52,990 nucleotides of DNA from Bacillota bacterium. Lineage in GTDB: Bacteria; Bacillota; SHA-98; UBA4971. Shown piece by piece: positions 45,060-46,893 of this stretch. A program made the translations under genes and the position numbers. The DNA lies in NCBI GenBank assembly GCA_030024085.1, contig JASEJE010000013.1:33835-86824 (forward strand). Direction: 5' to 3'. The notes beneath the pieces are model-generated. The model had not been told where the DNA came from. It saw only the letters and a list, made by a program, of their open reading frames with translations, and did no database searches. Each line of letters starts with the position of its first letter. Position 1 is the first letter of the stretch.

Positions 45060-45432
45060 CAGCACGATAGCAGTTCCAGGAATTCCGCAAACGCGTTCCG
45101 TGCTGCCAGCATATGGTAGATCGCTCGTCAGGTAAGGGATGGTAAGGTTACCCAGGTCGAGTTGCGCACATAGGGCCCCCTTTCCCCCAGCCCTGTAGCT
45201 CCGGGACAGTGGAGTTGGTGGATTGTGCTCTCCCATGTCACCCCGCCTACTTTGCTTATACCTACTACGAAAATGCGCCCGCCGTTTTCATCCTTCGCTG
45301 GTGCCGACGAAGTCGGCATGGGCGGCTACCCTGATCTGCACATCGGTATCGGCAGGCCATATCTTAGCGTCATAAGGCCCACCAGGATCTGCCTTGCTAT
45401 CTCTATGAGTGTCACGCCTCTTTTGGGTGCAT
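45060..45432. other. Intergenic stretch with no recognisable gene
   Basis: About 370 bases with short frames on both strands. A minus-strand trace (TLIEIARQILVGLMTLRYGL) is hydrophobic but not assigned to a family; it might be the tail of a lost gene. Otherwise I see nothing. Confidence 0.4.
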
Positions 45433-45464
45433 CCTTAAGATGCTTGTACCTTAAGATGCTTGTA
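45433..45464. repeat. Perfect 16-base tandem duplication
   Basis: CCTTAAGATGCTTGTA occurs twice without a gap. It is at the 3' end of the broken GntR gene; the second copy supplies the out-of-frame TAA that ends the remnant. Confidence 0.9.
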
Positions 45465-45850
45465 TATGAACAGCAGCATCAGGTTCACGACGATACAGGC
45501 TAGAGCATAGAGGGCATCTGCGCAGATGATGTCGCAATACCTAAAGTTTCGACCGCAGACTTCCTCTATCATCCTCATTGCTGCCGCAACCTCAGTCTCT
45601 CCTGGCAAAACTCGCTGCATCGCCACCTTGCGTCGCTCGTCGTCGCCGAGCGACTTGAGGGCTCGCGTCTCGTTGAGGAGAGTTCTGATCTCCGACGGTC
45701 TAGTCTCCTTCATGGCGCGGCGAACGGCATGTAGCTCGATCATCTCGCGGATGTCCGAGATCTCCTCGACATCCTCCGGCGACAATTCAACCACGTAATA
45801 GCCGACGCGCGGCGCAAGCACCACGAGGCCCTCCTCCACAAGGCCTATTA
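45435..45850 (-). pseudogene. GntR/FCD-type regulator remnant with hydrophobic tail
   Basis: The frame reads GLVEEGLVVLAPRVGYYVVE, then LSPEDVEEISDIREMIELHA, the wing-to-FCD junction of a FadR-type GntR regulator. The helix-turn-helix is truncated at the start: most of the DNA-binding half is missing. After about residue 95 the sequence (ADALYALACIVVNLMLLFIY) is hydrophobic and unlike an FCD domain, as if fused to a membrane-protein end. The last codons lie in a 16-base duplication. Not expected to function. Confidence 0.65.
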
Positions 45851-45873
45851 TGCATGGTAGCGACATGTGCAGC

Positions 45874-45929
45874 GTCATATCGTCACATAATGTATGACAT
45901 TGACAGGCTGGTGCAAAGCATGGTATTGT
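45874..45929 (+). promoter_or_regulatory. Promoter and inverted repeat for the HTH gene
   Basis: TTGACA (45900-45905), 18 bases, then TATTGT (45924-45929) is a promoter candidate. Just upstream GTCATA (45874-45879) and TATGAC (45893-45898) form an inverted repeat with a 13-base spacer, possibly a regulator site. The HTH gene begins 20 bases later. Confidence 0.5.
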
Positions 45930-45949
45930 AAAGGTGGGAGGTGGTAACC

Positions 45950-46141
45950 GTGCCAGAAGATAGCGTGGTCTATGAAGTGGAGGATGTGGCCCGCATTCTC
46001 AAGATGCACCGGCGAAGCGTCTACCGGCTCATTGAGGAGCAAGGCCTGCCGGCGGCGAACCTCGGGACCGGGCGGCGTCCACGTTACCGGGTACGCAAGG
46101 AGGACTTCGAGGCCTGGCTGAGCGAGCGGGCGAAGAAGTAA
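45950..46141 (+). CDS. Excisionase-type HTH DNA-binding protein
   Basis: A 63-residue protein of the XisA/MerR-like helix-turn-helix type (helix_turn_17): VYEVEDVARILKMHRRSVYR, then LIEEQGLPAANLGTGRRPRY. GTG start at 45950 with GGAGG eight bases upstream. Such small proteins direct phage excision or act as antitoxin or repressor components. It is followed by a toxin-antitoxin pair. Confidence 0.82.
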   Translation: MPEDSVVYEVEDVARILKMHRRSVYRLIEEQGLPAANLGTGRRPRYRVRKEDFEAWLSERAKK

Positions 46142-46218: not shown

Positions 46219-46428
46219 ATGAGCCTTCGTGAGGAACTCCTCAAGGCAATTGACGCCATGACCGAAGAGGACCTGGAAGAACTCCTCGAATTTGCGCGGT
46301 GGTTACGAGCCGATAAGGAAGAGCTCACCCCGGATGAGAAGCGGGAGCTTGAGGAAGCGCGCGCCGAAGTTGCCAGGGGAGAGGTGGTGTCCTGGCGTGA
46401 GATTCGGCGAAGCAAGGTTCAGGGTTAA
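46219..46428 (+). CDS. Type II antitoxin-like small acidic protein
   Basis: A 69-residue acidic helical protein (MSLREELLKAIDAMTEEDLE, then EARAEVARGEVVSWREIRRS). The end GEVVSWREI resembles the C-terminus of antitoxins paired with RelE-type toxins. The next gene overlaps it by 32 bases in another frame, the usual toxin-antitoxin layout. No DNA-binding motif is evident in its N-terminus. Confidence 0.75.
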   Translation: MSLREELLKAIDAMTEEDLEELLEFARWLRADKEELTPDEKRELEEARAEVARGEVVSWREIRRSKVQG

Positions 46429-46672
46429 GTTCAGCCGCAAGGCCAGGAACTACTATGAGCGGCTGGACCCGCGTACTGCGGCGAGGGTAGACAGGGCTCT
46501 TGAGGCCTTGGAAAAGGACCCGTCGAGCGGGGATGTAAAGGCCGTCAAGGGAGAACCGGGAACCTAGCGGGTTCAAGTGGGAGGCCTGCGTATCGTCTAC
46601 GAGGTGGACAAGCGGGAGCGAACCATTACGGTGCTGGTGATACGCCCCAGGAGGGATGTCTACAAGCACTAG
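46397..46672 (+). pseudogene. RelE/ParE-family toxin interrupted by an in-frame TAG
   Basis: From a GTG at 46397, 56 codons read FRVKFSRKARNYYERLDPRT, then LEALEKDPSSGDVKAVKGEP and GT. Then TAG (46565-46567), and the frame goes on RVQVGGLRIVYEVDKRERTI, then TVLVIRPRRDVYKH and a second TAG at 46670-46672. RelE toxins have a Tyr or Trp at the stop position (GEPGTYRxRVGxYRxVYEV). One base change from TAC or TAT would account for it. The rest of the protein is intact, so the mutation is recent or the stop is read through. Confidence 0.8.
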
Positions 46673-46817
46673 GGTGGGGGAGGGAGACTTATGGTACGCC
46701 GGGCGGGCAGCGGCGATGAGGTGTCTGAAGAGGACCCGGGCTTTCGATTGCCAGGTACTTAGCCTGTACGATTGCCTGTACGACGGACCTGCCCGCTAGC
46801 CCAAACCCCGAAATAGC

Positions 46818-46893
<76 letters not shown>

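What the first reader, a model, noticed from the sequence alone, without database searches (positions are those of the whole stretch)
46397..46672. RelE-type toxin with an in-frame amber codon at a conserved Tyr/Trp position
The frame is intact on both sides of a TAG at 46565-46567 (GEPGT-stop-RVQVGG, then IVYEVDKRERTITVL). Family sequences have an aromatic residue there. Everything else including the antitoxin overlap is preserved, so the toxin was silenced recently by one substitution, or TAG is read as an amino acid.
Basis: partly seen in the sequence, partly recalled or inferred. Interest (0 to 1): 0.55.

Follow-up and report, generated by a model that had tools for sequence, protein, structure and literature searches.

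The report
RelE toxin gene silenced by stop
A bacterial toxin gene from an ordinary toxin-antitoxin pair has been broken by a single stop codon in its middle, while its antitoxin and regulator remain intact; this is a common way for such pairs to decay and not a new genetic code.

Summary
The frame 46397-46672 encodes a RelE/ParE-superfamily toxin (PF05016, full length) interrupted by TAG at 46565-46567, codon 57. In 42 distinct homologues this column is Tyr 24, Trp 9, Phe 3, other 6. An intact three-gene relative (HTH, antitoxin, toxin) exists in another genome.

The best explanation is a recent nonsense mutation that truncates the toxin after 56 residues, before its three long strands. The antitoxin and an upstream HTH gene stay open.

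Reading TAG as an amino acid is not supported. TAG ends 99 of 352 long ORFs in a 453-kb sample, including those for ribosomal protein L2 and ATP synthase beta. None of 20 TAG read-throughs had its best Pfam stretch cross the TAG. RF1 is present, no PylS passes its cutoff, and none of 44 tRNAs has a CUA anticodon. The toxin frame itself ends in TAG, exactly at the family C terminus.

Decay recurs in this family: a second RelE remnant in the same genome has a TAG at a different codon, and 8 of 105 hits across the phylum are truly interrupted, at scattered places and with all three stops. A sequencing error cannot be excluded without reads. Ordinary; low interest.

The parts
45900..45929 (+). sigma-70-like promoter with extended -10 (TTGACA, 18 nt, TATTGT)
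   Evidence: 10 of 12 matches, one found against 0.3 expected; consensus match only
45941..46141 (+). HTH_17 / excisionase-type DNA-binding protein, 66 aa, likely regulator of the module
   Evidence: PF12728 56.2 bits, TIGR01764 37.9 bits; same gene order in L089
46219..46428 (+). antitoxin, 69 aa, intact
   Evidence: ORF; no Pfam or NCBIfam family over its cutoff; 59% identical over residues 1-56 to the ORF before an intact RelE in L089, 67% to a broken copy in G016
46397..46672 (+). RelE/ParE-superfamily toxin frame, 91 codons plus terminal TAG, interrupted at codon 57
46397..46567 (+). the part still translated in the ordinary way: 56-residue truncated product
   Evidence: in the predicted fold it holds the first strand, two helices and one short strand but not the three long strands
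46565..46567 (+). in-frame TAG in a column that is Tyr or Trp in 33 of 42 homologues
46568..46672 (+). untranslated but still conserved 3' part of the toxin (34 codons and the original stop)
   Evidence: 24 of 34 identical to L089

Best explanation
This is a RelE-type toxin-antitoxin module whose toxin gene was inactivated by one nonsense mutation. Translation stops after 56 residues (shown by the sequence), before the three long strands of the sheet (predicted model), so the product cannot fold into a working RelE (inferred). The antitoxin gene and the upstream HTH gene are intact (shown) and probably still expressed from the promoter-like site before the HTH gene (inferred). What remains is an orphan antitoxin plus regulator. 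It may be neutral debris, or may weakly neutralise related incoming RelE toxins (speculative). With the toxin gone nothing keeps the module, and it is expected to erode further, as its relatives have.
For: One lesion in an otherwise full-length family match. Aromatic column in 36 of 42 homologues, mostly Tyr/Trp codons one change from an amber codon. Model of the read-through protein has strands 9-12, 47-49, 56-61, 64-71, 76-84 and best PDB matches are RelE toxins, so the stop falls at the start of the 56-61 strand. TAG is a working stop: 99 of 352 ORFs of at least 150 codons end in TAG; sequence after TAG has GC1/2/3 of 0.63/0.61/0.64, like that after TAA and TGA and unlike coding 0.66/0.49/0.75. 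Of 22 TAG-ended ORFs with an in-frame extension of 80 or more codons, 20 were scanned and 14 gave a family; in none did the listed best stretch cross the TAG. No amber tRNA among 44, no PylS over cutoff, RF1 intact. Decay recurs: the other RelE remnant in this genome (C8) lacks its N-terminal part and has a TAG at another codon, where the syntenic G002 copy has Gln; the nearest relative in G016 has TAG and TGA in its antitoxin and a toxin that loses homology after residue 42; 8 of 105 phylum-wide hits have a true internal stop or frame break. Decay of type II modules by deletion or nonsense mutation is described for E. coli in PMC7167474 (passages), and orphan antitoxins are abundant in Klebsiella, PMC7192599 (passages).
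Against: No reads or second strain to confirm the base. No congener carries this locus, so the mutation cannot be placed on a tree. Expression of antitoxin and HTH gene is not shown. The tRNA set found lacks some expected anticodons (no His, Ile-GAT or Ala-TGC seen), so the tRNA survey is incomplete, in a 95.7% complete assembly.
Confidence: 0.87

Rival explanations
1. Sequencing or assembly error: the living organism has an intact toxin and the TAG is a wrong base call.
For: Genome is a 65-contig assembly of 95.7% completeness; no reads were available; the column tolerates few other codons.
Against: A single-base error falling on the one kind of site that makes a stop is judged far less likely a priori than decay, seen in 8 of 105 family hits. 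A second family member in the same genome also has a TAG while its G002 ortholog does not.
Confidence: 0.08
2. TAG is read as an amino acid (Tyr or Trp by a suppressor tRNA, or Pyl), or is leaky enough to give regulated full-length toxin.
For: Both RelE copies matched by this query in the genome carry an in-frame TAG, and conservation after the window's TAG is high.
Against: TAG ends 99 of 352 ORFs, among them the L2 and ATP synthase beta genes; RF1 intact; no CUA anticodon among 44 tRNAs; PylS search gave only 37.6 and 19.1 bits against a cutoff of 178; the C8 copy's TAG sits at a Gln column, not the aromatic one, and that copy is N-terminally truncated anyway; interrupted relatives use TAA, TAG and TGA at scattered positions; the toxin frame's own terminator is also TAG. 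Basal near-cognate misreading at low rate is not excluded.
Confidence: 0.04
3. The 56-residue truncated product is itself a functional peptide, for example a decoy that titrates the antitoxin.
For: Start, overlap with the antitoxin and the two helices are kept.
Against: The long strands are lost; none of the matches was seen to share this truncation; the conserved 3' part shows that the ancestral product was full length until recently.
Confidence: 0.01

Closest known systems
RelE toxins (RelBE family; RelE/ParE superfamily), e.g. aRelE of Pyrococcus horikoshii 1wmi, RelE of Thermus thermophilus 2khe, RelBE2 of Mycobacterium tuberculosis 3g5o
   Same: Same fold (Foldseek ranks 1-4) and detectable sequence similarity; gene follows and overlaps a small antitoxin gene
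   Different: The window gene carries an internal stop, so no full-length toxin is expected
Decaying chromosomal type II toxin-antitoxin modules (E. coli ccdO157 and others, reviewed in PMC7167474)
   Same: Toxin lost by a nonsense mutation while neighbours remain; scattered lesions in relatives
   Different: Different toxin family and organism; only one genome of this species available here
Orphan antitoxins (PMC7192599)
   Same: Intact antitoxin gene without a working toxin partner
   Different: Here the broken toxin is still adjacent and almost complete
paaR-paaA-parE tripartite module (PMC4803016)
   Same: Order regulator, antitoxin, RelE/ParE-superfamily toxin, with a promoter-like site before the regulator
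   Different: Here the putative regulator is of the HTH_17/excisionase type; its role is not tested; no homology between the antitoxins was tested

Membership tests
RelE/ParE toxin superfamily (PF05016) | Full-length profile match above the curated cutoff | tested here: met
   40.6 bits against 23, profile 1-89 of 89, with the TAG read as X
RelE/ParE toxin superfamily (PF05016) | RelE fold (two helices and an antiparallel sheet) | tested here: met
   mean pLDDT 87.6 for the read-through protein, top PDB hits RelE toxins
RelE/ParE toxin superfamily (PF05016) | A complete open reading frame able to give the toxin | tested here: not met
   TAG at codon 57; the gene is a broken member
Type II toxin-antitoxin module | Small antitoxin gene directly upstream, overlapping or adjacent | tested here: met
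   antitoxin ORF overlaps by 32 nt; same layout with homologous antitoxin in L089
Type II toxin-antitoxin module | Toxin inhibits growth and antitoxin relieves it | not testable with these tools
   needs expression in a laboratory strain
RelE subgroup (ribosome-dependent mRNA cleavage) as against ParE (gyrase) | mRNA cleavage on the ribosome | not testable with these tools
   fold and sequence rank RelE structures first, Pfam's model is named ParE_toxin; biochemical target unknown
Amber-recoded genes (suppressor tRNA or pyrrolysine) | An amber-decoding tRNA or PylS in the genome | tested here: not met
   0 of 44 tRNAs with CUA, no PylS over cutoff; genome 95.7% complete
Amber-recoded genes (suppressor tRNA or pyrrolysine) | TAG avoided as a terminator or conserved proteins that continue across TAG | tested here: not met
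   99 of 352 ORFs end in TAG; 0 of 20 read-throughs with a best stretch crossing the TAG

The most novel reading that the evidence does not exclude
The window holds the remnant of a three-gene RelE module in which the DNA-binding half (HTH_17 protein) and the toxin-neutralising half (69-aa antitoxin) of what is elsewhere one fused antitoxin are separate genes. With the toxin silenced, the two intact genes may persist as a regulator plus an immunity (anti-addiction) factor against related incoming RelE modules. Support: among 47 RelE loci checked, 14 have an HTH of this type upstream; in 8 it is fused with an antitoxin-like tail ending at the toxin start, in the window, L089 and one G016 place it is a separate gene.
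Probability: 0.2. Interest if true: 0.3.

Novelty: new member of a known kind. Interest (0 to 1): 0.12.

Why it matters
Little by itself: it is one more decaying toxin-antitoxin module and a warning that single in-frame stops in RelE genes should be expected (8 of 105 hits here) and do not indicate recoding. If the remaining antitoxin protects against related toxins, it would be an example of anti-addiction immunity left by decay.

Tried and rejected
Recoding and suppressor tRNA: rejected on the evidence. The '1 TAG' that one search reports in the RF1 gene looked like an in-frame amber in a release factor gene; one search shows it is the codon just before the ATG, so RF1 is intact. Of the 11 stop-bearing rows among the 105 match rows, three (G184, G348, G166) proved to be edge effects and were dropped from the count of 8.

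Shared position of the stop in relatives (which would hint at programmed recoding): rejected, positions differ. Close relatives in viral contigs and genome contigs: one search found none; one search found one distant locus (41%). Congeners: none of the five has this RelE locus; the tRNA cluster next door is conserved in four of them and homology stops within about 20 nt of the 3' end of tRNA-Lys. A selection test on the C8 remnant against G002 (2 synonymous, 3 missense, 1 nonsense change in 51 codons) is too small to decide anything. Terminator scan found nothing useful. One search used a column number off by one; one search corrects it and only one search is used for the column counts. Literature: searches; papers seen only as passages (PMC7167474, PMC7192599, PMC4803016, PMC2701414, PMC6843646, PMC6212727) or in listings; PMC6212727 gave nothing relevant.

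Full report
The observation. Window 46397-46672 is one frame from GTG to TAG with a single internal stop, TAG at 46565-46567, codon 57. The antitoxin ORF 46219-46428 overlaps its start by 32 nt. With the stop read as X the frame matches PF05016 from end to end (40.6 bits, cutoff 23), and the nearest solved relatives are RelE toxins 3g5o, 2khe and 1wmi. So both sides of the TAG belong to one toxin gene.

The column. Pairwise alignment of the homologues gathered gave 44 alignments over the column at E up to 1e-3 from 68 RelE-bearing loci, 42 of them distinct: Tyr 24, Trp 9, Phe 3, Leu 3, Ile 1, Lys 1, Gln 1. The three solved relatives have Phe, Trp and Tyr.

What the stop does. AlphaFold2 on the read-through protein with 25 aligned sequences (mean pLDDT 87.6) gives strand 9-12, helices 14-21 and 25-40, a short strand 47-49 and strands 56-61, 64-71 and 76-84. 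Foldseek ranks RelE toxins first. The stop lies at the start of strand 56-61, so the normal product lacks all three long strands. That such a product is inactive is inference, but a strong one.

Is TAG a stop here? Of 352 ORFs of at least 150 codons chosen with little overlap, 201 end in TGA, 99 in TAG and 52 in TAA; in the window alone 20, 14 and 5. Sequence after TAG is non-coding in composition, as after the other two stops. Twenty-two TAG-ended ORFs have an in-frame extension of 80 or more codons. Twenty of them were scanned read-through against Pfam; 14 gave a family and in none did the listed best stretch of any family cross the TAG. Among them are ribosomal protein L2 followed in frame by S19, ATP synthase beta followed by epsilon, and a homocitrate-synthase-like protein followed by an aconitase-family one. 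RF1 is present and intact (553 bits). Rfam finds 44 tRNAs; ARAGORN on all 44 places shows no CUA anticodon. PylS gave only sub-cutoff matches. The toxin frame itself ends in TAG at 46670-46672, at the family C terminus (L089 and L004 also end in KH). TAG is therefore a stop, and reading it as an amino acid is not supported.

Decay in relatives. The query finds one other RelE in the genome, on contig C8. It is a 51-codon remnant without the N-terminal part, and has a TAG three codons further on than the window's column, where the syntenic copy of congener G002 has Gln. In G016 (same class) the copy most like the window's has TAG and TGA in the antitoxin and a toxin that loses homology after residue 42; a complete RelE module lies just before it. 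Of 105 match rows over 398 genomes of the phylum, 11 were flagged for stops; one search shows that 8 are true internal stops or frame breaks (window, C8, G383, G088, G092:C19, G226, G172, G010) and 3 are edge effects. Stops are TAA, TAG and TGA at different places. This is the pattern of neutral decay, not of programmed recoding.

How recent. The part after the TAG is 24 of 34 identical to the nearest intact toxin (L089, G092), the part before it 23 of 56, and there is no second lesion. That argues for a young mutation, but no congener carries the locus, so it cannot be dated.

The module. Upstream of the antitoxin is an intact HTH_17/excisionase-type gene, 45941-46141, preceded by a promoter-like site. 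L089 has the same order HTH, antitoxin, toxin, all open. In 14 of 47 RelE loci examined an HTH of this type lies upstream; in 8 of them it is fused to an antitoxin-like tail directly before the toxin (the profile was built from four of the hits, which match by construction, and 4 of the 47 loci had less than 1000 bases upstream). The separate antitoxin shares its C-terminal end with the fused one of L090 (45% over 31 residues, E 1.4e-5). Tripartite modules with a separate regulator are known, for instance paaR-paaA-parE (PMC4803016, passages). Whether this HTH_17 variant has been described was looked for only in one search and in passages of PMC2701414 and PMC4803016, so I claim no novelty for it.

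Verdict. A broken RelE toxin with intact antitoxin and regulator: a degenerate type II module. Decay by deletion or nonsense mutation is described for E. coli modules (PMC7167474, passages) and orphan antitoxins are common (PMC7192599, passages). Sequencing error remains possible without reads.

Noticed in passing
L003:1501-1653 (minus; G000 contig C8:71627-71779) and L011:1501-1653 (G002): A second RelE remnant in the window's genome lacks the N-terminal part and has a TAG at a Gln codon; the syntenic copy in the congener is equally truncated but has Gln there. An HTH_17-type gene lies directly upstream in both.
   Followed up: yes
L024:1048-1626 (G016): Two RelE modules in tandem: a complete one, then a copy most like the window's with TAG and TGA in the antitoxin and a toxin that loses homology after residue 42.
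   Followed up: partly
L061:152-227 (G000 contig C35:4051-4126): An unusual 76-nt tRNA with short variable loop is called tRNA-Ser(GCT), although the genome has an ordinary long tRNA-Ser(GCT) (L040:1348-1442); the base before the anticodon reads C where U is usual (recalled).
   Followed up: partly
46799-46818: Synteny with four congeners stops within about 20 nt of the 3' end of tRNA-Lys; the module lies in the variable part beyond it.
   Followed up: partly
45076-45520: Stretches of 70-190 bases that recur in several places of the genus, many at contig ends of G003, so probably a multicopy element or its remains.
   Followed up: no
45435-45878 (minus): A 147-aa ORF without a Pfam match; its DNA at 45629-45843 is 75-78% identical to places in G001 and G005. 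It looks like a broken regulator gene (impression, not tested).
   Followed up: no
L090:1501-1857 (minus), L093, L095, L099, L105, L109, L014, L025: HTH_17-type DNA-binding domain fused with an antitoxin-like tail directly before RelE, while the window and L089 have the two parts as separate genes.
   Followed up: partly
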